A stretch of 12,159 nt of DNA, taken from contig JAITQR010000364.1 in the NCBI GenBank assembly GCA_031288815.1, forward strand, positions 1 to 12,159. Reading direction: 5' to 3'. This document shows, piece by piece, positions 937-10,939 of this stretch. Origin of the DNA: Treponema sp. (lineage in GTDB: Bacteria; Spirochaetota; Spirochaetia; Treponematales; Breznakiellaceae). The position numbers and the translations under genes are program-made. The notes beneath the pieces were generated by a model. The model saw nothing but the letters and a program-made list of their open reading frames with translations, had not been told where the DNA came from and made no database searches. Numbering within the stretch: position 1 is the stretch's first letter; each line of letters opens with the position of its first letter.

Positions 937-1281
937 ATGCCCTATATCGCCGTCAATACCGCTCAGAAGCTTTCGGAAGAGAAACAGGAAAAACTCAAGG
1001 CCGAATTCGGCCGGCTCATCGGCATCATCCCCACCAAAAACGAGGCGGGCCTCCTGGTCGATTTTTCCGGAGACTGCGTACTTTACAAGGGCGGCGCAAA
1101 GGTTAACGGCGCTTTTGTGGAACTCCGCATTTTCCATAAAACGGATTTCGACGCCAAGAAAAAATTTACCGAGGAGATCTTCGCGCTTTTTTCCCGGGAA
1201 CTGGGTATCGAGCAGGGGAACCTATACCTGACCATCCTGGAGTTCGACAACTGGGGCAGCGGCGGTACCCTGAAAGAGTAG
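937..1281 (+). CDS. MIF/tautomerase-superfamily protein
   Basis: A 114-residue protein that matches the macrophage migration inhibitory factor (MIF) / phenylpyruvate tautomerase fold in length and pattern. It opens MPYIAVNT, so removal of Met would leave the N-terminal proline that acts as catalytic base in this superfamily. The MIF-like order follows: strand, amphipathic helix (residues 12-30), strand around GLLVDF, YKGG turn, strand FVELRIF, second helix (71-90), a YLTILEF strand, and an NWGSGG tail corresponding to the C-terminal MIF segment. MIF relatives form trimers with active sites at subunit interfaces. A strong AAGGAG (923-928) lies 8 nt before the start. No signal peptide is present, so it is cytosolic unless exported by another route. 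The natural substrate is unknown. Confidence 0.85.
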   Translation: MPYIAVNTAQKLSEEKQEKLKAEFGRLIGIIPTKNEAGLLVDFSGDCVLYKGGAKVNGAFVELRIFHKTDFDAKKKFTEEIFALFSRELGIEQGNLYLTILEFDNWGSGGTLKE

Positions 1282-1338: not shown

Positions 1339-1764
1339 TTATTCCAGGACATCCGATACCAGCAAGGCGACAAAGACGGCGAAACCGGCGAAAATTGATA
1401 TCAGCCGGATGATCCGGTCCTGCATAAAGACGGGTTTCGCGGCGATTACCACATCCCCCGGGGAGGTATAGGGTTTCCGGTTTCCCGTGAAACCCACGAT
1501 ACGGACAAATTTTTCGTTTTTTTCACCAAAACCCAGTTCCCGGGCGTAAACCGCGATGGTGTCCCGGTCGTAGAGCAGGGCGTTTTTGGTGTTTTCCAGT
1601 TCCTCGTTGATAATTCCAAGCTTCTCGATGTTCTGTTTCTGTTTTTCTCTTTCGGCAAGGAGTTCCCCGTAAGCCGAGAGGCCCATGGATCCCGCGCAAA
1701 GAGACATAAGGGTGTAGACCGCCACCGCTGTCCAAAGGGCCAGGAGATACTTGCTTAGTCTCAT
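1339..1764 (-). CDS. FtsB/DivIC-like septum formation initiator with two membrane helices
   Basis: A 141-residue membrane protein resembling the FtsB/DivIC family, which forms the coiled-coil divisome subcomplex with FtsL and FtsQ/DivIB. Residues 5-28 form a transmembrane helix. Residues about 33-64 form a polar coiled coil (AEREKQKQNIEKLGIINEEL region). Residues 66-90 carry the family motif DRDTIAVYARELGFGEKNE, comparable to the ARE-G-gxxxxGE region of FtsB/DivIC. Unlike canonical members, which end after this domain, the protein has a second hydrophobic segment at about 119-137, just before the C-terminus. That would bring the tail back to the cytoplasm. The ribosome site is weak: an AAAGGA lies about 15 nt upstream of the ATG. 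It converges on the MIF-like gene and diverges from the operon at 2002. The family call rests on motif and topology, so FtsL-like is an alternative. Confidence 0.75.
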   Translation of the reverse strand: MRLSKYLLALWTAVAVYTLMSLCAGSMGLSAYGELLAEREKQKQNIEKLGIINEELENTKNALLYDRDTIAVYARELGFGEKNEKFVRIVGFTGNRKPYTSPGDVVIAAKPVFMQDRIIRLISIFAGFAVFVALLVSDVLE

Positions 1765-2001: not shown

Positions 2002-4059
2002 ATGGCAAGAAAAAAGAAACCGTCGATATATGACGACCGCAGTTCCATCGGTTCTTCTAAGGAGCTGGATGAGTACGGAGTTTGGGTCAAGAGCGAACCT
2101 AGGGACATTAACGGCGGGGAAAGTGACTTCTCCCTCCCCGGTTTTTCGGCCGATACCGACAGTCTGCCGGATTTTGATCTGAACCTTGAGGATCCCCCTT
2201 CTTTTAGCGAGGATTTCTCCATCGAGGAAGAGGAAAGCGTCCCGGCGGCCTCCGGCGGTGATGAGGAAGCCTTAAGCATCGCGGATCTCGACAAGACAGC
2301 CGACGAATTCAACATCGATCTGCCGGATCTGCCCGTTGAGGATACCGGTTCCGATTTTCCCGATCTCTCCGATTTGCCGGATCTTTCCGATTTTTCGGAC
2401 TTCTCTTCCGAAGAAGAGCCGGCGTCTTCCGGCGGGAACCTTTACGAGGATCTGTCGCTGGACACGGATATTGACAAAGATATTACCAACAGCGAAGGAC
2501 TTTCCCTTTCGGAAGGGGATTTTGATCTTTCCTCGGACAGCGGGGACAGCGTTAAAGAGGAAGCGGGGATCGATGCCGGTACGGAAACGGCTCCGGATTC
2601 CGATGATGAGACCGGCTTTACCGAGGTGCCTCTGGAAGATATTCTGGGGGACATTTCTTTCGACATTCCCACAGAGGCCAATCCGGAGGAAACTCCGGCG
2701 GCGGGGGAAGAAAAGGGAGCTTCCGCGGATCTTTCCACCGAACTCCTCAAGAAAATCGCGGAGGAGCTTTCTTCCATACGGAGCGAGCTTTCCGCCTTGA
2801 AAGACGAATTTTCCGTAATCCGCGGCCAAACCCTGACGGCCGAAGACGCCTCGCGGGGACATGGCGGTTTTTTTGACCAGGAGGAGGACGATAAAATCGC
2901 CCTGACAGGCGATGAACTTAACAACATCATCAGTACCGCCGACTTTACCGAGGAAGTGGGGGCGGACGCCAGCGAGGCGGTTTCCGGCGCCGAGGATCTT
3001 CCTCTCCCCGAAGGGGAAGATCTTTCCCTGCCCGAGGGGGAGGAGCTCTCCCTGTCCGAAGAAGAGAATTTTCTCCTCTCCGGTGGAGGGGAGCTCATCC
3101 TGCCCCAGGGAGAGGATCTTTCCGTTGACGCGGATATCGGGGCGGAAGCCGGCCCCGTTGAGGAAGCCGGCGCGGCTGTGGAGACGGCCGCCGAAGAACT
3201 CCCCGCCCTGGGGGAGACGGCGGAGGATCTGGCCGCCTTTATGGATACGGACGCGCCTTCCGGAGGAGAAGTTGAAACGGCCGGGGATGAGGTTCTCGAA
3301 ATGGCGGATTTTGGGGATCTGGATCTGTCTTTCGGGGAGACCGGGGAAACCCTTGAAGATGAGCTCAACCTTGATGAACCGGCCAATAACGATCTGCTCA
3401 TTGACGATATAAGTTTTGAAGGGCTGGAGACGGAAGATACGGAAGACGAAGAAGGCATTGACCTTTCAGACGCGGTGATTGACGAGCCGGACCTGGGGGC
3501 GGAAATTCAGGAGAACCCGGTGGAAGAACCCCCGGAGGATATTTCCCTGGATCTGGAAGAACTGGACGAGGAAGAAGAAGCCGCCCCTGACGAGACGGAG
3601 ACGGAAGCCCTGGCAGAAGAGGAAATCGATCTTTCCGGTCCGGAAGAAGCCTCGGAAGCGGAACTCCCGGCGGATCTTTCCCTTGAGGAATCGGCGCTTG
3701 AGGACAGTCTCGATCAGGTGATCCCCGAAGGCTTCGAGATAGAATCGGAAAATTCCCCGGCGCCTTTCGTGGACGATATTGAGGAACAGGAAAGCTTCGA
3801 AGATACGGAAGCCGGGGAACTGAGTCCGGCGGAAGAGGTGGAAGACGCCCCGGAGGAGGATTTTGCCGAAAGCCCCGGGGAGGATCTTGCCGGATCGTCG
3901 AGGGAGATTTCCGGCAATTTGAAACAGGAAATAAAGACCGTATTAAGCTATATGGATAAGCTACTGGAAGCCCTGCCGGAAAAGAAAATTGAGGAATTCG
4001 CCAAATCCGAATATTTTGACACTTACAAGAAGCTTTTTAAGGAACTGGGACTGGTATAA
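2002..4059 (+). CDS. 685-aa highly acidic low-complexity protein with conserved-looking ends
   Basis: I do not recognise a named family. The start follows a strong AGGGGAG ribosome site 6 nt upstream. The protein is extremely rich in Asp and Glu, has no cysteine, and has one Trp (residue 28) and one His. It lacks a signal peptide and membrane helix, so it is probably cytoplasmic. Parts: a basic-to-mixed N-terminal segment (1-37, starting ARKKK); an acidic stretch with six D-[FL]-[SP] tripeptides (118-135); a coiled coil at 246-276 with an unbroken 3-4 pattern of L249, I252, L256, I259, L263, L266, F270, I273; a less biased island at 286-318; five tandem octapeptides (331-370); a long Glu-rich region; and a helical C-terminal segment (635-685) ending LFKELGLV with normal composition. 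The layout suggests a flexible linker between two docking ends, perhaps a scaffold. Its stop overlaps the next start by 1 nt, and it heads the Maf operon. Confidence 0.9.
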   Translation: MARKKKPSIYDDRSSIGSSKELDEYGVWVKSEPRDINGGESDFSLPGFSADTDSLPDFDLNLEDPPSFSEDFSIEEEESVPAASGGDEEALSIADLDKTADEFNIDLPDLPVEDTGSDFPDLSDLPDLSDFSDFSSEEEPASSGGNLYEDLSLDTDIDKDITNSEGLSLSEGDFDLSSDSGDSVKEEAGIDAGTETAPDSDDETGFTEVPLEDILGDISFDIPTEANPEETPAAGEEKGASADLSTELLKKIAEELSSIRSELSALKDEFSVIRGQTLTAEDASRGHGGFFDQEEDDKIALTGDELNNIISTADFTEEVGADASEAVSGAEDLPLPEGEDLSLPEGEELSLSEEENFLLSGGGELILPQGEDLSVDADIGAEAGPVEEAGAAVETAAEELPALGETAEDLAAFMDTDAPSGGEVETAGDEVLEMADFGDLDLSFGETGETLEDELNLDEPANNDLLIDDISFEGLETEDTEDEEGIDLSDAVIDEPDLGAEIQENPVEEPPEDISLDLEELDEEEEAAPDETETEALAEEEIDLSGPEEASEAELPADLSLEESALEDSLDQVIPEGFEIESENSPAPFVDDIEEQESFEDTEAGELSPAEEVEDAPEEDFAESPGEDLAGSSREISGNLKQEIKTVLSYMDKLLEALPEKKIEEFAKSEYFDTYKKLFKELGLV
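2353..2406 (+). repeat. Six in-frame 9-bp repeats encoding D-[FL]-[SP]
   Basis: Six consecutive 9-bp units (starting at 2353, 2362, 2371, 2380, 2389 and 2398) encode Asp, Phe/Leu, Ser/Pro, at residues 118-135 of the acidic protein. Two more units of the type DLP lie just before, at 2317-2334. The identical 9-mer GATCTTTCC (Asp-Leu-Ser) recurs in frame at 2380, 2524, 2728, 3019, 3115, 3628 and 3673, suggesting repeat-driven growth of this gene. Confidence 0.8.
2992..3111 (+). repeat. Five tandem 24-bp units encoding E-[DE]-L-x-L-[PS]-E-G octapeptides
   Basis: Imperfect 24-bp units start at 2992, 3016, 3040, 3064 and 3088, with a partial sixth at 3112. The first two and the fifth are closest to the consensus, while the fourth (ENFLLSGG) has drifted. 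They encode residues 331-370 of the acidic protein. Alternating acidic and Leu residues suit a repeated short binding motif. Slippage here could change length between strains. Confidence 0.85.
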
Positions 4060-4427
4060 TGGGGCTTTTAAGTAAAGCCGCCGTTAAAATGGCGGGGCCC
4101 GATACGCCCTTGAAAGAGTTCGGGCAAAGACTGGAAAAATACTTTAGCTCCAACCCTTCGGTTCAGGGCATCGTGTTCGAAATACCTCCGGACTTTGCCG
4201 CAAACAAAGAGACCGAGGATTTTAACGCCATGATAAACCGGATAATCGCCCTGCTGGGTTCCGCCATGCCCCTTCCCTCGGGGCGGGTTCTGGCGCTCCT
4301 TTCCGATATGACGGATCGGGAACTTATAGCCCGGCATCTGGAAAAAACCGTTAACACAAAGGCCCTGGCGCTGTTTGCCGCCAAAGAACCCTCCAAAGTC
4401 CTGGAATACATCGGGCCTTATCTGTAA
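4059..4427 (+). CDS. 122-aa protein of unknown function in the Maf operon
   Basis: I do not recognise a characterised family. The start ATG overlaps the stop of the acidic-protein gene (TAATG), and its own stop overlaps the next start in the same way, so translation is probably coupled on both sides. The protein is soluble-looking, with no signal peptide or membrane helix. Residues 16-32 form an amphipathic helix. A strand-like GIVFEIP segment (37-43) follows, then a helix at 54-68 (FNAMINRIIALLGSA). A PLPSGRVLALLSD strand or turn comes at 71-83, then DRELIARHLEKTVNT (86-100), and a helical tail ends VLEYIGPYL. The mixed alpha/beta pattern suggests a compact single domain. Context makes it a possible partner of the acidic protein or of the Maf enzymes, but that is inference only. 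Confidence 0.88.
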   Translation: MGLLSKAAVKMAGPDTPLKEFGQRLEKYFSSNPSVQGIVFEIPPDFAANKETEDFNAMINRIIALLGSAMPLPSGRVLALLSDMTDRELIARHLEKTVNTKALALFAAKEPSKVLEYIGPYL

Positions 4428-5956
4428 TGGAGAGGGGGCGAGATTCCGGAACCGGCTGGGAAACCGGCGGGACCGGCCGGGATTTCGCCGGAAGAAACCT
4501 CCATTCCCGCTACAATCCCCAGGCCGAAGCGGAACGTTACATTGACGCCCTGGCCCTTCCGGGGGGGCTCCGCTATTTTATCCTTGTTGAGCCCGGTTTG
4601 GGCTACACGATCCCCGTATTGGCCCGGCGTTTCCCCCAGGCCCGGTTTTTCGTCCTCCACGCCGAAGATCCCCGGCCTTTTCGTCCTGTCTACCGGGAGA
4701 CTGAGAGAGTCTCTGTCTGGAGCCCCGAAAGCGGCATTGGGCCTGAAAATTTCCTTGAGCGGGAAATTCCCGACACCCGCGCCTCCGGCCTGCGGATCCT
4801 GGAATGGCGGCCCTCTCTTAACTATTACGGGGAAAGGTACCTGAAGCTCCTTTCCGCCGCGGCGGAATTTGTAAGGCGCTCCGACGCGAACAGCCGTACC
4901 GCGAGGAGTTTCGGCAGAAGGTGGTTCAGAAATTTCCTGAGGAACCAGCGGCTCCTGGGCAGCTTCCCGGTCTTCGCGGAGCTTTCCCTGCCGGCCCTGA
5001 TCGCCGGGGCCGGGCCTTCCCTTGAGGAAGCTATTCCCCAGATCAGGGCCATGGGGGAAGGGAGCTGCTTCGTCATTGCCCCTTCCTCCTCGGTAATGGC
5101 CCTGGCGGCCGGGGGCCTTACCCCCGATCTGATCCTCAGCACCGACGGCGGCATCTGGGCCCTGCTCCATCTCTACGAATGTCTGCGCCGGGGCACTGGC
5201 GGCCCCGGCGGGACTCCGGTTATCGCGGCAAGCCTGGGCGCCGCCCTGCCCTCCCAGTGCGGCGCTTTTCCCCTGCTCCCCCTGAGCGACGGCAGTCTCT
5301 GGCAGCGGCTGGTTCTGGAAACCCTGGGGATACCCCACCTTGCCCTGGCCCAGCGGGGTACGGTCACCGCTTCCGCCTTGGATCTGGCCTTTGCCCTGGG
5401 GGCAAAGGAGGCCTGTATCGCCGGAATGGATCTCGGTCTCCGGGATATCAGGAGCCACGCCAGGCCCTACAGTTTCGACCGGCTCCGGGCCGAGGGGGCC
5501 TGCCGTTTCCGGCCCGAATATTCCCAGGCTTTTACCCGATCCTTCGGGATAAACGGCGGGGGAAGCCACCGGATCTACGCGGCATGGTTCAAGGAGCGGC
5601 TCCAATCCTGGAAGGGACGGCTTTATACCCTGGGGAACAACAACCCGGTCTTTCAGGAACTCAAAGTCTGGGGAGACCGGCCGGAGAGGCCGGGACAGGG
5701 GAGACCGGGCCTCCGGATCGTCACCCGGCCTGTCCCGGATAAGCCGGTAAGGATCGCCGTAAACCGCCTCCTGGCCGCCCTGGATGATCCCCAAAGCGCC
5801 GGGCTTTTGTACCGGGAGCTGGCGCCCCTCCTCCTCCCCGATTTCTCTCCCGATTCCGGCCCGGGACTTCCCCCTCGGGATCATGACGGCATCCGCGCCC
5901 TGGCGGCGGAGATAGCGAAGCTCGCCCGGCCCTACCTGGAGCGGGTTCATGGATAA
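4427..5956 (+). CDS. Maf-like motility accessory factor (DUF115), first copy
   Basis: A 509-residue protein of the Maf/DUF115 family. Characterised members transfer nonulosonic (sialic-like) sugars to Ser/Thr of flagellin in the cytoplasm before export. The N-terminus has the family signature LHSRYNPQAEAERYI (about residues 26-40), followed by a Rossmann-like lead-in (YFILVEPGLGY). The central domain has GAGPSLE at 194-200, in the nucleotide-sugar-binding fold typical of DUF115, and an STDGG acidic motif with D240. A helical C-terminal half follows. The start overlaps the preceding stop by 1 nt and has no clear ribosome site of its own, consistent with coupled translation. Its last 8 nt overlap the second Maf-like gene. 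No flagellin or nonulosonate-synthesis genes lie in the window, so donor and acceptor are unknown. Confidence 0.85.
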   Translation: MERGRDSGTGWETGGTGRDFAGRNLHSRYNPQAEAERYIDALALPGGLRYFILVEPGLGYTIPVLARRFPQARFFVLHAEDPRPFRPVYRETERVSVWSPESGIGPENFLEREIPDTRASGLRILEWRPSLNYYGERYLKLLSAAAEFVRRSDANSRTARSFGRRWFRNFLRNQRLLGSFPVFAELSLPALIAGAGPSLEEAIPQIRAMGEGSCFVIAPSSSVMALAAGGLTPDLILSTDGGIWALLHLYECLRRGTGGPGGTPVIAASLGAALPSQCGAFPLLPLSDGSLWQRLVLETLGIPHLALAQRGTVTASALDLAFALGAKEACIAGMDLGLRDIRSHARPYSFDRLRAEGACRFRPEYSQAFTRSFGINGGGSHRIYAAWFKERLQSWKGRLYTLGNNNPVFQELKVWGDRPERPGQGRPGLRIVTRPVPDKPVRIAVNRLLAALDDPQSAGLLYRELAPLLLPDFSPDSGPGLPPRDHDGIRALAAEIAKLARPYLERVHG

Positions 5957-7691
5957 AGCCCCGATCTTTGAGCGGAACCTCCGCGCCCTTTCCCTTAACG
6001 ATCCGGCGCTTTCCAGGGAGATCGCCGGGGCCGGAGGGGGAAGCCGCTACCGCTTCGTTGAAAGCCGTTCCGGGGAGATCGTCCCCGCCATCATCGACGG
6101 CGAAGGCAGATCCCGTCCCCTCCATTCAACGGTAGACCCCAAAAGGGAGGCCGCCCGGCTGGTTTCCAGCTTCGGCAGGGACGAGAGTTTTCTCGTGTTC
6201 TTTGGTCTTGGCGGCGGCTTCCACGCGGCGGCGGCCCTGAAGCGCCCCGAAACCGGGCGGCTCATCATCGTAGAGTACGGCTTGGCGGGCCTGGCGGAAC
6301 TTTTTTCCGCCCTGGACTATGCCCCCATCCTGGGAGACAGCCGGGTAAGCCTCCTCCTGGACAGGGAACCCGCCGGCCTGGAGGCTTATATCCTGGGGAA
6401 CTACCTCCCCGCCCTTTCCGGGGGATTCCGGCTCCTTCCCCTGCGGGCAAGGACGGAGCTTTCGCCGGGGGAATTCCTCCCCGCGGGGGAGGCCGTCCGC
6501 CGGGCCCTGGAGAGGCTGTCCGCCGATTATTCGGTACAGGCCCACTTCGGAAGCCGCTGGTTCGAAAACATCCTGCGGAATTTAAAGCGGGCGGAGGAAC
6601 CGGGCCCTCCCCTCCCCCGGCCGCGCCGCGCCGCCGTCTGCGCCGCGGGCCCTTCCCTGGACATCCAGATCCCCCTTCTGGCGGAAGATCTGCGAAAAAA
6701 ACCCGCCGAACGGCCCTTCCTTATCGCCACCGATACAAGCCTCCCCGCCCTGCTTTGCGCCGGCATTGAACCGGGGGCGGTGGTTTCCATCGACTGCCAG
6801 CACATCAGCTGTTACCACTTTATGGGTTCCGGAACCGGGGACGGGAGGGGAAAAACGGTTTCCCGGCTCCCGGGCCGCCTCTTTCTGGATCTGGCAAGTC
6901 CCCCGCTTCTGGCCCGGCTTTCCGCCGCCCCCTGCTTTTTTTCGGGCGGCCATCCCCTGGCAAGCTATATTTCCCAGTATTGGCGGCCCCTCCTGCCGGT
7001 GGACAGCTCCGGCGGCAACGTCACCTACGCGGCCCTTTCCCTGGCGGAAAGGCTTGGGGCGGAACGGATAGATCTCTACGGGGCGGATTTCTCCTATCCC
7101 CTGGGGAGAACCTACGCCAGGGGAACCTATATCTACCCATTTTTTGAAAGGCGGCAGAACCGCCGCGGCCCCCTGGAGGCCCTCCACTCCGGCTTTCTCT
7201 ACCGATCCCCTTTGGAAAAGATCCCCGGGGAGGATTCGCGGCCCGGCGCTTCCTGGTATTACGAGACGGCAATCTTAAGGCGATACCGGGAACTGCTGGA
7301 GGAAAAGGCCGCCTCCATGACAAGCCGGGTTCGGCCCATGCCGGGCCTGGGCGCGCCTATCCGTATAAGGCAAAAACCCGGCCCGGGGTCTAAGCCCGGC
7401 GGACAGGCCGCCTTTAACCCCGGCCCTCCCCGGATGGGAGCCGACGAATTTCTTTCCGCCTACCGGAACAGGGTACGGGCCCTTAAGCCCCTGGACGGAA
7501 AGGCCGGATTCGGATCCGGCAACCTCCGGGAAACAGACCCGGACAGCCGCCTTATCTTGACCACCCTGCTCCCCCTGGCGGCGGCGTTGCGACGGCGGGA
7601 GCCGGGACTTCGCCCGGACGAAACCCTGGAGCGGACAAGGGCATACGCCCTTGCCAGTATAGACCGGGTACTCGGCAATACAAGCGCCTAA
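5949..7691 (+). CDS. Maf-like motility accessory factor (DUF115), second copy
   Basis: A 580-residue second Maf/DUF115 protein, clearly divergent from its neighbour. It keeps the same order: an LHSTVDPKREAARLV signature (about 58-72), a FFGLGGGFHAAAAL Gly-rich loop after it, a central AAGPSLD motif (232-238) where the first copy has GAGPSLE, and an acidic VVSIDCQ motif with D282. It then has a Pro/Gly-rich stretch around 465-500 before a helical C-terminus. The ATG lies inside the end of the upstream gene (8-nt overlap), with GGAG 7 nt before it. By family it should glycosylate flagellin or a related surface protein, or it could be a non-catalytic partner of copy one. It ends the operon; the next gene converges on it. 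Confidence 0.82.
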   Translation: MDKAPIFERNLRALSLNDPALSREIAGAGGGSRYRFVESRSGEIVPAIIDGEGRSRPLHSTVDPKREAARLVSSFGRDESFLVFFGLGGGFHAAAALKRPETGRLIIVEYGLAGLAELFSALDYAPILGDSRVSLLLDREPAGLEAYILGNYLPALSGGFRLLPLRARTELSPGEFLPAGEAVRRALERLSADYSVQAHFGSRWFENILRNLKRAEEPGPPLPRPRRAAVCAAGPSLDIQIPLLAEDLRKKPAERPFLIATDTSLPALLCAGIEPGAVVSIDCQHISCYHFMGSGTGDGRGKTVSRLPGRLFLDLASPPLLARLSAAPCFFSGGHPLASYISQYWRPLLPVDSSGGNVTYAALSLAERLGAERIDLYGADFSYPLGRTYARGTYIYPFFERRQNRRGPLEALHSGFLYRSPLEKIPGEDSRPGASWYYETAILRRYRELLEEKAASMTSRVRPMPGLGAPIRIRQKPGPGSKPGGQAAFNPGPPRMGADEFLSAYRNRVRALKPLDGKAGFGSGNLRETDPDSRLILTTLLPLAAALRRREPGLRPDETLERTRAYALASIDRVLGNTSA

Positions 7692-7782: not shown

Positions 7783-8757
7783 CTACGTGTCCCGAAAATG
7801 GCAGGCCACGTAGTGACCCGCTCCCACCGGATCCAGGGGGGGCTCGGCGCCGAGGCAGATAGACTGACGCCGGGGACAGCGGGTATGGAAACGGCAGCCC
7901 TCCGGGGGTCTGGTTTGGGAGGGAACGTCCCCCTTCAGGATGATCCGCTCCACCCCGTTGCCGGGGATGGCGGAAAGCAGGGCTTTGGTGTAAGGATGCC
8001 GGGGCTCCTCAAAGATATTCCGGTGGCTTCCGGATTCCACCAGTTTTCCCAGATACATCACCCCTACCCTGTTTGATACGTGGTACACCACGCTGAGGTT
8101 GTGGGAAATAAAAAGATAGGTAAGGGAAAATTCTTTTTGCAGATCCGCCAGCAGGTTGATTACCTGGGCCTGGATGGACACATCCAGGGCGGAGACCGCC
8201 TCATCGCAGACGATAAGTTCCGGGTTCAGGGCCAGAGCCCGGGCAATTCCTACCCGCTGTTTCTGCCCCCCGGACAACTCGTGGGGATAACGGGAAAGGT
8301 GGTACTCCGAAAGGCCGACCCGATCCATAAGGAAGCGGATCCGCTCCTGCCGTTCATCCTTTGTGCCGCTCCGGTGGATCCGAAAAGGTTCGAGCAGGGT
8401 GTCCCCGATGGTAAGCCGGGGATTCAGGGCCGCGCTGGGATCCTGGAAGATAAGCTGCATCTTCCGGCGGAAATTCTTGAGGCTTCGGCCCCGTTTCTCC
8501 GCCAGATCCTCCCCGGCAAACATCACCTTGCCGGAACTGGGAGGGTAGAGGGCGATCAAGACCCTGCCCAGGGTGCTTTTGCCGCAGCCCGATTCCCCTA
8601 CCAGGCCGTAGGTTTCACCTCGTTTTATGTCCAGGCTTACCCCGTCCACCGCCTTGATGTACTCCCGCCCCAGGTTAAGCCGCCCCCCGGCGGGGAAATA
8701 TTTCCGCAGATCTTCGGCCCGAATCAGCGCCCGCGCGCTTGCCTCCCCTTCAGCCAT
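7783..8757 (-). CDS. oppF: Oligopeptide ABC transporter ATPase, OppF/DppF type
   Basis: Cytoplasmic ATPase of a peptide (Opp/Dpp) or related nickel/sugar-oligomer importer, 324 residues. I chose the ATG at 8755-8757 because AAGGAG lies 7 nt upstream and the protein then begins just before the ABC domain. A longer in-frame opening to 8958 only reads through oppD. Motifs: Walker A GESGCGKS 54-61, Q-loop Q105, signature LSGGQ 161-165, Walker B LIVCDEA 181-187 with E186, and H-loop H219. The C-terminal oligopeptide domain has C288, C294, C301 and C319, the four-Cys pattern that binds an iron-sulphur cluster in some OppD/DppD-type ATPases. The start overlaps the oppD stop by 8 nt, so the two are coupled. 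The specific substrate cannot be told. Confidence 0.93.
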   Translation of the reverse strand: MAEGEASARALIRAEDLRKYFPAGGRLNLGREYIKAVDGVSLDIKRGETYGLVGESGCGKSTLGRVLIALYPPSSGKVMFAGEDLAEKRGRSLKNFRRKMQLIFQDPSAALNPRLTIGDTLLEPFRIHRSGTKDERQERIRFLMDRVGLSEYHLSRYPHELSGGQKQRVGIARALALNPELIVCDEAVSALDVSIQAQVINLLADLQKEFSLTYLFISHNLSVVYHVSNRVGVMYLGKLVESGSHRNIFEEPRHPYTKALLSAIPGNGVERIILKGDVPSQTRPPEGCRFHTRCPRRQSICLGAEPPLDPVGAGHYVACHFRDT

Positions 8758-9814
8758 AGCAAAACTCCTTCCCGCCCGAGGGGCTTCCCGCCGCGGCCCC
8801 GGCAGCGGCGTCCCCCGCTCCGGTTTCGGCGATCCGGGGAAAGTGGCAGCGGACCAGCCGGCCCCTTCCGGCCGGATCTTCCCCCCGCGGAGGGGAAAGG
8901 GCCGGAGAAACGGCAAGACATTCCTCCCTGGCGTAATCGCAACGGGGGGCGAAGGCACAGCCCGGGGGCATGTCGAAGGGGCTGGGGACGGTTCCCTTGA
9001 TGGCGTAGAGCCGATCCCGCCTGCTCCCTATGGCGGGAATGGAAAAGAGCAGGGCCTCCGAATAGGGGTGCAGGGGGCCTTTGAAAAGTTCGTCCACCAA
9101 ACAGGTTTCTACCACCTGGCCCGCGTACATCACCGCCACCCGGTCGCACATCTCGGAGATGATCCCCAGATCGTGGGTAATGAGGATGATCGCCGATCCG
9201 GTTTCCCGGCGCAGTTCCTTCATCAGTTCCAAAATCTGGGCCTGGATAGTTACGTCCAGGGCGGTAGTCGGTTCATCGGCGATGAGAAGCTTGGGCTTAC
9301 AGGCCAGGGCCATGGCTATCATGACCCTCTGGCGCATACCCCCGGAAAGCTGGTGGGGGTACTCCCCCAGGCGCCGGGAGGGAGAGGGGATTCCCGTGAT
9401 GGTAAGAAGCTCCAGAGCCCTGGCCCTGGCCTCCTTCTTCCCCAGGCCCTTGTGAAGGATCAGGGGTTCCATGATCTGATCCCCGCAGGTATGAATAGGG
9501 TTCAGGGAAGTCATCGGTTCCTGGAATATCATGGCGATCTCGTTACCCCGCAGATCCCGCACCGCCTTATCCGGCAGAGACATGATATCCCGGTCGTCAA
9601 AAAAAACCTTCCCTCCCAGGATCTGCCCCGGAGGGTCGGGGATAAGCCGCATCAGCGCCAGGGCGGTTACGGATTTGCCGCAGCCCGATTCCCCCACCAG
9701 GCCCAGGGCTTCCCCGGTTCCCACGCCAAAGGAAAGATCCCTCACCGCCAGGGCGACTCCCTCCTGGGTGGTAAACCGGACATTCAGGTTCTCGATACTC
9801 AACAAGGACTGCAC
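8750..9814 (-). CDS. oppD: Oligopeptide ABC transporter ATPase, OppD/DppD type
   Basis: Partner ATPase of OppF in a peptide-type ABC importer, 354 residues. The start is GTG (9812-9814) with AAAGGGG 6 nt upstream. Motifs: Walker A GESGCGKS 41-48, Q-loop Q98, signature LSGGM 156-160, Walker B LLIADEP 176-182, H-loop H214. The C-terminal oligopeptide domain carries C286, C292, C299 and C323, spaced as in DppD-type ATPases with a [4Fe-4S] cluster. The C-terminus beyond residue 330 is an Ala/Gly-rich tail. These ATPases normally work as a heterodimer under two permeases (OppB/OppC) with a substrate-binding lipoprotein (OppA). None of these genes lies next to the pair here, and the upstream neighbour points the other way. 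Confidence 0.93.
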   Translation of the reverse strand: MQSLLSIENLNVRFTTQEGVALAVRDLSFGVGTGEALGLVGESGCGKSVTALALMRLIPDPPGQILGGKVFFDDRDIMSLPDKAVRDLRGNEIAMIFQEPMTSLNPIHTCGDQIMEPLILHKGLGKKEARARALELLTITGIPSPSRRLGEYPHQLSGGMRQRVMIAMALACKPKLLIADEPTTALDVTIQAQILELMKELRRETGSAIILITHDLGIISEMCDRVAVMYAGQVVETCLVDELFKGPLHPYSEALLFSIPAIGSRRDRLYAIKGTVPSPFDMPPGCAFAPRCDYAREECLAVSPALSPPRGEDPAGRGRLVRCHFPRIAETGAGDAAAGAAAGSPSGGKEFCYG

Positions 9815-9955: not shown

Positions 9956-10939
9956 ATGGGCCCTCATATTCCCCGCGGCGCGGCTTTCGGTATCTTCGTC
10001 TTTCTTAGCCTCTCCGCCTGTTCCAGCCTTTCGCCGGTAAGCGGCCTTCGGGAAGGCCCGCCAAAAGAGACAGGCGGCATCGGGGGTATCAGGCCGGACT
10101 GGCGGCCTTTCGCCGCGGCGGAAAGCCCTGGCTTCGCCTACTTCGCGGGAAGGATCGGGGAACCCCGTCTGGAATTCTACGCCCTCAAGATCGATCTCGG
10201 CGCGCCCGGATTGCGGATCCTGGTAGGGGCCGGGGAAACGGGCAGGGAGGAAGGGGACGCGGGGGGAGAGGAGAAAGAAGACCGAGGAAGCCCCCTTCCC
10301 GATACAGTACCTGCCACCTATGTCTCAAGCTTCGTCAGAAACAACGGGCTTCTGGCGGGGATCAACGCCGTACCCTTCGACCCGTCCTCGGACCGGGAGG
10401 GGGAAGCCCGGAGGCTGGCGGGACTCGCCGTATCGGAGGGAAGGCTTATCGCGGAGCCGGTTTCCCGCTACGCCGCCCTGGTATTCTACCGGCGGGGCGG
10501 GGCGGCGATTGTGGAACAGGCTGAACTGGACACCGAATCTTCCGGTTGGCCGGATCGGCTTGGGGATATTAAAAACGCCGTCGGGGGTTTCCACCGCATC
10601 CTGCGAAACGGGGAACTTACCCGGCGGGCCCGGGAAAAGCAGGAAGGGCCCCGTTCAGCCCGGAGCGCCGCGGGACTTTCCGACGGAGGGAAAACCCTCT
10701 ACCTCCTGGCAATCGACGGCAAACGGCCCGGCAGCCCGGGCGCCACCGAGGCGGAAACCGCCCTGATCCTCAGACAACTGGGCGCTACCGAGGGGATAAA
10801 CCTGGACGGCGGCGGTTCCAGCGCCCTGGCCCTACGCTTCCCCGACGGCGAAACCAGGCCGGTGAACACCCCGGTACACCACATCATCCCCGGCAGGGAA
10901 CGGGCCGTAGCGGTCTGTCTGGGGATCGGCGTGGATTAA
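9956..10939 (+). CDS. Lipoprotein with NAGPA-type phosphodiester glycosidase domain
   Basis: A 327-residue predicted lipoprotein. Residues 1-21 form a signal peptide with hydrophobic core GIFVFLSL, and L-S-A-C (19-22) is a lipobox, so C22 would be lipidated. The mature protein has the NAGPA fold (related to the enzyme that uncovers mannose-6-phosphate by removing GlcNAc). Visible landmarks are GINAVPF with N137, the R-S-A-R-S-A-A-G segment (233-240), AIDGKR with D254, the T264-x-x-E-T region, and the hallmark NLDGGGSS (282-289). Bacterial members are envelope enzymes that hydrolyse sugar phosphodiester linkages; the natural glycan is unknown. An acidic, Gly-rich insertion (about 96-112) breaks the early domain. 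No strong ribosome site precedes the ATG, but the signal peptide begins there, and the frame is open upstream only to 9920. Confidence 0.87.
   Translation: MGPHIPRGAAFGIFVFLSLSACSSLSPVSGLREGPPKETGGIGGIRPDWRPFAAAESPGFAYFAGRIGEPRLEFYALKIDLGAPGLRILVGAGETGREEGDAGGEEKEDRGSPLPDTVPATYVSSFVRNNGLLAGINAVPFDPSSDREGEARRLAGLAVSEGRLIAEPVSRYAALVFYRRGGAAIVEQAELDTESSGWPDRLGDIKNAVGGFHRILRNGELTRRAREKQEGPRSARSAAGLSDGGKTLYLLAIDGKRPGSPGATEAETALILRQLGATEGINLDGGGSSALALRFPDGETRPVNTPVHHIIPGRERAVAVCLGIGVD

What the first reader, a model, noticed from the sequence alone, without database searches (positions are those of the whole stretch)
2002..7691. Four translationally coupled genes: acidic scaffold-like protein, small unknown protein and two Maf enzymes
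Junctions overlap by 1, 1 and 8 nt, so the four products are probably made in fixed ratio. Maf genes usually sit beside flagellin or nonulosonic-acid genes; here they sit behind two proteins with no known role in glycosylation. Periplasmic flagella of spirochaetes are glycosylated, but the enzymes and any accessory proteins are poorly defined. A plausible reading is a complex in which the acidic protein and its small partner hold the glycosyltransferases, flagellin or an export chaperone.
Basis: partly seen in the sequence, partly recalled or inferred. Interest (0 to 1): 0.7.

Follow-up and report, generated by a model that had tools for sequence, protein, structure and literature searches.

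The report
Conserved spirochaete Maf glycosyltransferase gene block
Four tightly packed genes (a long acidic protein, a small probable remnant of a signalling-enzyme fold, and two sugar-transfer enzymes) keep the same order in many treponemes, and the acidic protein is found in most spirochaetes tested, which makes the set a good candidate for a little-studied flagellin-handling unit.

Summary
In detail: G1 (685 aa, acidic), G2 (122 aa), G3 (509 aa) and G4 (580 aa) overlap by 1, 1 and 8 nt. The order is not local: of 77 genome loci found by G1 similarity, 61 run at least 4.2 kb past G1, and in 61 of 61 G3 then G4 follow; 48 show a G2-type gene between, abutting or sharing 1 nt in 39. The G1 C-terminal domain occurs once per genome in 212 of 296 Spirochaetota genomes and tracks Maf genes (211 of 252 Maf-positive, 1 of 44 Maf-negative), uncorrected for phylogeny. 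G2 is a probable GGDEF-fold domain without the GGDEF signature; genes in its place in three distant loci have GAF and GGDEF domains, in three others none was found. In five distant loci G1-G2 lies directly behind fliS. Best reading: a cytoplasmic flagellin-handling and glycosylation unit. Target, complex and catalysis are inferred. Against: each of 16 treponeme genomes has two further Mafs, and in one distant genome the Maf nearest flagellin is of another clade. A FliM-like docking motif failed a profile test.

The parts
2002..4059 (+). G1: acidic, largely low-complexity protein, 685 aa; family carries precomputed PF27359 (name not known to me; no hit in the Pfam copy scanned)
   Evidence: ORF; 793 homologues at E<=1e-3, the 120 listed all with PF27359
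2062..2085 (+). G1 N-terminal conserved stretch ELDEYGVW (treponeme-type G1)
   Evidence: invariant columns in alignment A1 of 26 proteins; coordinates
2734..2811 (+). G1 conserved helix-like stretch (STELLKKIAEELSSIRSELSALKDEF), possible coiled coil
   Evidence: invariant columns between S245 and K267; coiled coil by eye, not computed
2881..2958 (+). G1 short motif EEDDKIALTGDELNNIISTADFTEEV; one copy here, up to 4 strict copies in distant G1
   Evidence: at least one strict copy in 88 of 96 treponeme-type and 9 of 22 distant G1; shuffles give 0.3 and 0.07 in total
3859..4056 (+). stretch holding the G1 C-terminal domain (three predicted helices), the part conserved across Spirochaetota
   Evidence: A3; 212 of 296 genomes, one match each; model mean pLDDT 74.7, first 15 residues under 50
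4059..4427 (+). G2: 122 aa, MGLLSKA start plus a probable degenerate GGDEF-fold domain (PLPSGR in the hairpin where GGDEF would lie)
4427..5956 (+). G3: Maf-type (PF01973) protein of a distinct clade; A.SS and TDGG where G4 has A.DT and D.Q
   Evidence: clade of 16 rows 100/100; motif counts; PDB 5mu5 E 1e-4
5949..7691 (+). G4: Maf-type (PF01973) protein of a second clade; GPS, A.DT and D.Q conserved
   Evidence: clade of 15 rows 99/95; motif counts; no PDB sequence match of its own
4057..4061 (+). TAATG stop/start overlap G1-G2
4425..4429 (+). TAATG stop/start overlap G2-G3
5949..5956 (+). 8-nt overlap G3-G4 (ATGGATAA)
1339..1764 (-). divergent DivIC/FtsB-like gene, the commonest upstream neighbour
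   Evidence: Pfam DivIC 6.2e-12, over cut-off; gene of the same cluster on the opposite strand upstream of G1 in 66 of 118 loci, window included

Best explanation
A cytoplasmic flagellin-handling and glycosylation unit. SHOWN by sequence: two Maf-type proteins of different clades, an acidic protein whose C-terminal domain is single-copy in most spirochaete genomes tested, and a small protein with a probable GGDEF fold and no GGDEF signature, in one conserved tightly packed gene order. INFERRED: G1 works as an extended, multivalent scaffold; its helical C-terminal domain and its L[ST]xDELxxIL motif dock partners, and its acidic linkers gather clients. G2 is a non-catalytic adaptor descended from a GAF-GGDEF protein. 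G4, with the fuller donor-site motifs, and G3, with altered ones, transfer successive or different sugars to flagellin before FliS takes it to the export gate.
For: G1..G3-G4 in 61 of 61 loci with room, 48 with an MGL-start gene between. Of 40 hand-picked further regions, 20 hold G1 plus a Maf pair, 2 a single Maf and 18 none within the fetched stretch. G1-G2 directly behind fliS in 5 and within 9 kb of a fapA-type gene in 11 of 22 distant loci; two members of each cluster were confirmed by Pfam: FliS 1.3e-39 and 9.1e-40, FapA 1.7e-40 and 2.7e-59. G1 in 211 of 252 Maf-positive and 1 of 44 Maf-negative genomes; within FlhA-positive genomes 205 of 245 and 1 of 33. In three genomes (G170, G131, G036), two of them nearly identical in their other Mafs, two tandem flagellin genes lie 10-11 kb from G1 on the same strand. 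[quoted passage not shown] T. denticola FlaBs carry a 450.2 Da glycan needed for assembly (PMC9481697, passages). T. pallidum flagellins are glycosylated (Wyss 1998, only its title in reference lists).
Against: Each of 16 treponeme genomes has two more Maf genes, whose neighbours look PBP-like and SurA-like (by eye). In distant genome G031, where G1-G2 follows fliS, a flagellin gene lies about 5 kb from a Maf that groups with neither G3 nor G4. Outside G170/G131/G036 the locus is not near flagellin in the genomes checked (nearest otherwise about 28 kb in G205). fliS adjacency may be one lineage event. 6 of 18 FlhA-negative genomes have G1, perhaps incomplete assemblies. 41 Maf-positive genomes lack a detectable G1. 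The commonest treponeme neighbour is DivIC-like. Some treponeme loci lack G2 (e.g. L040, L045, L068, L070, L073). No binding data. My confidence was 0.5 before I re-read for G031 and is lowered to 0.45.
Confidence: 0.45

Rival explanations
1. The unit glycosylates or regulates something other than flagellin, such as an envelope, division or periplasmic protein; the divergent DivIC-like gene is its functional partner and fliS proximity is incidental.
For: DivIC-like gene divergent to G1 in 66 of 118 clustered loci, window included; the other treponeme Mafs sit beside PBP-like and SurA-like ORFs (by eye); 6 of 18 FlhA-negative genomes have G1; in G031 another Maf clade is the one near flagellin.
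Against: The DivIC-like cluster is in 0 of 22 distant loci, while 12 of those 22 have a fliS- and/or fapA-type gene near G1-G2; 0 of 11 genomes lacking both FlhA and Maf have G1.
Confidence: 0.23
2. Conserved gene order without a joint complex: G1-G2 is an older spirochaete module with its own task and the Maf pair merely shares its transcript in treponemes.
For: 18 of 40 hand-picked regions have G1 without any Maf in the fetched stretch; some treponeme loci lack G2 but keep the rest; nothing physical was tested.
Against: Tight G1-G2 junctions kept in many genomes; G1 tracks Maf presence even where the genes are not adjacent.
Confidence: 0.22
3. G1 is a chemotaxis or motor adaptor: its L[ST]xDELxxIL motif mimics the FliM N-terminal EIDALL peptide and docks CheY-like receivers, tying flagellin processing to motor state.
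For: Pattern-level match: 4 hits in the 2102 non-G1 proteins held, two of them at the N-termini of two ORFs that read as FliM (FliM by eye); EIDALL in FliM/FliY binds CheY-P (PMC9126983, passages).
Against: A profile built from G1 motifs alone does not pick FliM: HMM rank 714 for one FliM, the other not listed; PSSM rank 74 for one N-terminal site, the other not listed. I had noticed the resemblance before writing the pattern, and its sixth position was widened to allow the I of FliM.
Confidence: 0.06

Closest known systems
Maf flagellin glycosyltransferases (PF01973; Aeromonas Maf1, Magnetospirillum Maf 5mu5)
   Same: PF01973 domain over cut-off in G3 and G4; sequence match of G3 to 5mu5 at E 1e-4 and of the L059 G4 relative at 3.2e-5. 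That 5mu5 is the Magnetospirillum Maf is recalled; PMC11339370 (passages) mentions one solved Maf, from that genus
   Different: Two paralogues in tandem behind G1-G2; no flagellin or NulO gene noticed in the window; window G4 has no PDB sequence match itself, 10.6 bits to the Maf N-terminal model (cut-off 23.5) and 18 of 670 bits to NCBIfam PseD
GGDEF domain / GAF-GGDEF diguanylate cyclases
   Same: Predicted fold of G2; Pfam GGDEF over cut-off in the genes in G2's place in L115 and L119, below it in L106
   Different: No GG[DE]EF signature; no Pfam hit for the window's G2, for seven long treponeme G2 (two weak unrelated hits) or for L114, L121 and L123 as GGDEF or GAF
FliM/FliY N-terminal CheY-docking peptide (EIDALL)
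   Same: L[ST]x[DE]E[IL]xx[IL][IL] pattern
   Different: Internal and sometimes repeated in an acidic protein, not N-terminal; profile test negative
FliS / FapA flagellar assembly genes
   Same: Neighbours of G1-G2 in 12 of 22 distant loci
   Different: No Pfam match of G1 or G2 to either family in the proteins scanned

Membership tests
Maf / PF01973 glycosyltransferase superfamily | PF01973 domain over the curated cut-off | tested here: met
   G3 62.5 bits, G4 71.2 bits, cut-off 34.6
Maf with N-terminal domain PF20157 | PF20157 over cut-off | tested here: not met
   G4 10.6 bits vs 23.5; G3 no hit
PseD-type flagellin modification protein (NCBIfam NF050051) | curated score | tested here: not met
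   18 of 670 bits for window G4; 55.7 of 670 for the L090 relative
Flagellin glycosyltransferase | transfers sugar to flagellin | not testable with these tools
   needs deletion mutants and mass spectrometry
GGDEF domain (G2) | GGDEF fold | tested here: inconclusive
Diguanylate cyclase (G2) | GG[DE]EF active-site signature | tested here: not met
   hairpin reads PLPSGRVLALL
GGDEF Pfam family PF00990 (window G2) | match over cut-off | tested here: not met
   0 families; met in L115 and L119, below cut-off in L106, absent in L114, L121, L123
FliM-type CheY-docking motif (G1) | recognised by a profile of the G1 motif | tested here: not met
FliM-type CheY-docking motif (G1) | binds CheY-P | not testable with these tools
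   peptide binding assay needed

The most novel reading that the evidence does not exclude
A spirochaete-wide flagellin-handling hub: a disordered acidic scaffold (G1) with docking motifs and a dead GGDEF-fold partner (G2) hands nascent flagellin from Maf enzymes to FliS. In its boldest form the docking motif is a FliM-like receiver-binding peptide that couples filament glycosylation and assembly to CheY or motor state.
Probability: 0.25. Interest if true: 0.8.

Novelty: new variant of a known kind. Interest (0 to 1): 0.55.

Why it matters
Spirochaete flagellins are glycosylated and the glycan is needed for filament assembly in T. denticola (PMC9481697, passages); in Leptospira, putative FlaB1 glycans sit at the core-sheath interface (PMC13144727, passages). 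None of the listings and passages I saw in my ten paper searches names the transferases or an accessory protein in treponemes. That library holds open-licence papers only; Kurniyati 2017 and Wyss 1998 are not in it, so this is no proof of novelty. The locus gives four concrete genes to delete, one of them detectable in 211 of 252 Maf-positive spirochaete genomes. It also suggests that a degenerate GAF-GGDEF protein has been recruited into flagellar assembly.

Tried and rejected
Charge attraction between acidic G1 and basic Mafs: pooled, G3 and G4 have median pI 8.87 and 8.71 against 7.84 for 20 other Mafs (p 0.001 and 0.019), but the six same-genome comparisons show no consistent difference, so I set it aside. 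G3 as a dead enzyme: it lacks the A.DT Asp and the Q of D.Q that G4 has, but 5mu5 lacks them too in the printed alignments, so no verdict. FliM mimicry: pattern yes, profile no. GGDEF by sequence alone: hhalign from treponeme G2 to the distant GAF-GGDEF genes stayed weak (probabilities 0.3 to 40); the inference rests on fold, position and the MGL start. Fold search of the G1 C-terminal model gave nothing usable. NeuB as a marker of the donor sugar: 27 of 27 genomes, but also 9 of 14 controls, so uninformative. Rfam: no match over gathering score. ARAGORN: no tRNA. Promoter- and terminator-like scans were not used. The p-values ignore phylogeny; the Maf-negative and FlhA-negative sets are partly derived by subtraction from the listed rows. 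My recall that many small Maf-negative genomes are Borrelia was not checked. The 77 loci are the best 80 of 230 confirmed matches to the window's G1 profile, hence biased to near relatives; L044 and L066 are two contigs of one MAG. The 40 regions were picked by hand along the ranking, not at random; L129 repeats L042. In one search L123 counts as G3-G4 by profile score, but its first Maf lies outside the G3 clade.
Full report
OBSERVATION. The four ORFs and overlaps are as described: 2002-4059, 4059-4427, 4427-5956 and 5949-7691, sharing 1, 1 and 8 nt. G1 is 31% D+E with pI 4.05. G3 and G4 carry PF01973, the Maf/MptE-like domain, over its cut-off; they share 25% identity over 359 aligned columns. 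No whole genome is held for the window.

CONSERVATION. A G1 profile (A1) was scanned over genome contigs; the best 80 of 230 confirmed matches gave 77 loci. In 61 of them at least 4.2 kb follows G1, and in all 61 a G3-type then a G4-type gene follow. The script found an MGL-start gene directly behind G1 in 48 of the 61. Of the 13 it missed, L032 has a 268-aa G2 and L042 and L057 have an unassigned ORF in the gap; in L040, L045, L068, L070 and L073 no such gene was found. The G1-G2 spacing is -1 or 0 nt in 39 of the 48. Of the 16 loci with less room, 12 show at least a G3 behind G1 and four end before any Maf.

WIDER SPREAD. A1 hits 185 and the G1 C-terminal profile A3 hits 212 of 296 Spirochaetota genomes, A3 once per genome. 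I fetched 40 further regions by hand along the ranking; L129 repeats L042. Twenty hold G1 with a Maf pair: 18 in G3-G4 order by profile score (among them L123, whose first Maf lies outside the G3 clade), L101 with G3 in two ORFs, and L114 with both Mafs scored G4-like. Two (L110, L116) hold one Maf and 18 none in the fetched stretch. An MGL-start gene follows G1 in 34 of 40. L090 lies on a 1,139,633-bp contig that I take to be T. pallidum from recalled length, L098 on a 2,843,201-bp contig that I take to be T. denticola ATCC 35405, likewise by recall. Both show G1, G2, G3 and G4 in order with a divergent gene like the window's DivIC-like one.

NEIGHBOURS. Clustering of neighbouring ORFs over 118 loci (window included; L042/L129 and L044/L066 not independent) gave the DivIC-like gene on the opposite strand upstream of G1 in 66 loci and a further gene behind G4 in 43. 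The latter scores GGDEF 0.0026 (below cut-off) in L090 and nothing in L019; the window lacks it. Among the 22 distant loci L104-L125, FliS-cluster genes lie directly upstream of G1 in five (L106, L112, L113, L117, L118) and FapA-cluster genes start within 9 kb of the G1 start in eleven, together 12 of 22; two members of each cluster were confirmed by Pfam. In six of the 22 a gene that reads as ATP synthase epsilon lies just upstream (cluster 28, by eye).

MAF PROTEINS. The tree (57 rows) puts G3 in a clade of 16 rows (100/100) and G4 in one of 15 (99/95); the twelve other Mafs of six treponeme genomes form two groups of six. The 16 treponeme-type genomes have four PF01973 matches each, the pair plus two (in the phylum search, G011 showed three). 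The two extra Mafs sit beside a PBP-like and a SurA-like ORF (by eye). G4 keeps A.DT (D and T in 85 of 85), D282 (85 of 85) and Q284 (99%); G3 has Ser for that Asp in 77%, keeps the second Asp but has Gly for the Gln; GPS is kept in 80 of 85 G4 and 55 of 86 G3.

CO-OCCURRENCE. Crossing: G1 in 211 of 252 Maf-positive and 1 of 44 Maf-negative genomes; within FlhA-positive genomes 205 of 245 and 1 of 33; among FlhA-negative genomes 6 of 7 with Maf and 0 of 11 without. Fisher p is 5e-27 and 8e-21 for the first two, but related genomes are not independent, so this is support, not proof. 41 Maf-positive genomes have no detectable G1.

FLAGELLIN DISTANCE. Of 17 genomes searched for flagellin, two tandem flagellin genes lie 10-11 kb from G1 on the same strand in G170, G131 and G036; in G205 about 28 kb; in the rest farther or on another contig. 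In G170 fliD-like and flaG-like ORFs stand between, with several unrelated ORFs (by eye). Against the reading: in distant genome G031 a flagellin gene lies about 5 kb from a Maf (L136) that groups with neither G3 nor G4.

G1 MOTIF. IALTGDELNNII belongs to a motif found at least once in 88 of 96 treponeme-type G1 and 9 of 22 distant G1, up to four strict copies; shuffles give 0.3 and 0.07 in total. The G1 proteins are related, so copies are not independent evidence. One gene in G2's place (L105) carries a similar stretch, E 0.017. The motif resembles the FliM N-terminus: of four pattern hits outside G1, two are ORFs that read as FliM. A profile of G1 motifs alone does not retrieve FliM, so this is a lead only.

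MECHANISM. Shown: gene order, families, spread, loss of the GGDEF signature, FliS and FapA linkage in part of the distant loci. Inferred: cytoplasmic complex, G1 as scaffold, G2 as adaptor, Mafs acting on flagellin before FliS. [quoted passage not shown] That the pair serves another target cannot be excluded.

NOVELTY. Maf loci are known. A Maf pair tied by gene order to a spirochaete-wide acidic protein and a dead GGDEF-fold protein did not appear in the listings and passages I saw. T. pallidum tags TP0173-TP0176, which I recalled for this area, gave two papers, where the passages seen are about gene fusions; I could not place the tags on the genes.

Noticed in passing
window 1339-1764 (-): DivIC/FtsB-like gene, divergent from G1; same cluster upstream of G1 in 66 of 118 loci.
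   Followed up: partly
window 937-1281 (+): Small tautomerase/MIF-like protein, only weak hits (NCBIfam DmpI 1.1e-4, under cut-off).
   Followed up: no
window 9956-10939 (+): Phosphodiester glycosidase (NAGPA, Pfam 1.2e-25).
   Followed up: no
window 7783-9814 (-): Two ORFs that read as oligopeptide-transporter ATPases (by eye), where other loci have a further gene behind G4.
   Followed up: no
L019 17448-18755; L090 2565-3980: A gene behind G4 in 43 of 118 clustered loci, GGDEF-like below cut-off in L090 and without Pfam hit in L019; missing in the window.
   Followed up: partly
L131, L132, L134, L142, L144, L146 and L130, L133, L135, L143, L145: The two other treponeme Mafs have their own neighbours: a PBP-like ORF and a SurA-like ORF respectively (by eye).
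   Followed up: partly
L136 (G031): A Maf of another clade lies about 5 kb from a flagellin gene in a distant spirochaete.
   Followed up: partly
L150 7848-12424: fliD-like, flaG-like and two flagellin genes within about 11-12 kb of G1 in genome G170.
   Followed up: partly
L105 6096-8336 (-): A gene in G2's place carries a G1-like motif (ITLTAEELADLQG, E 0.017).
   Followed up: no
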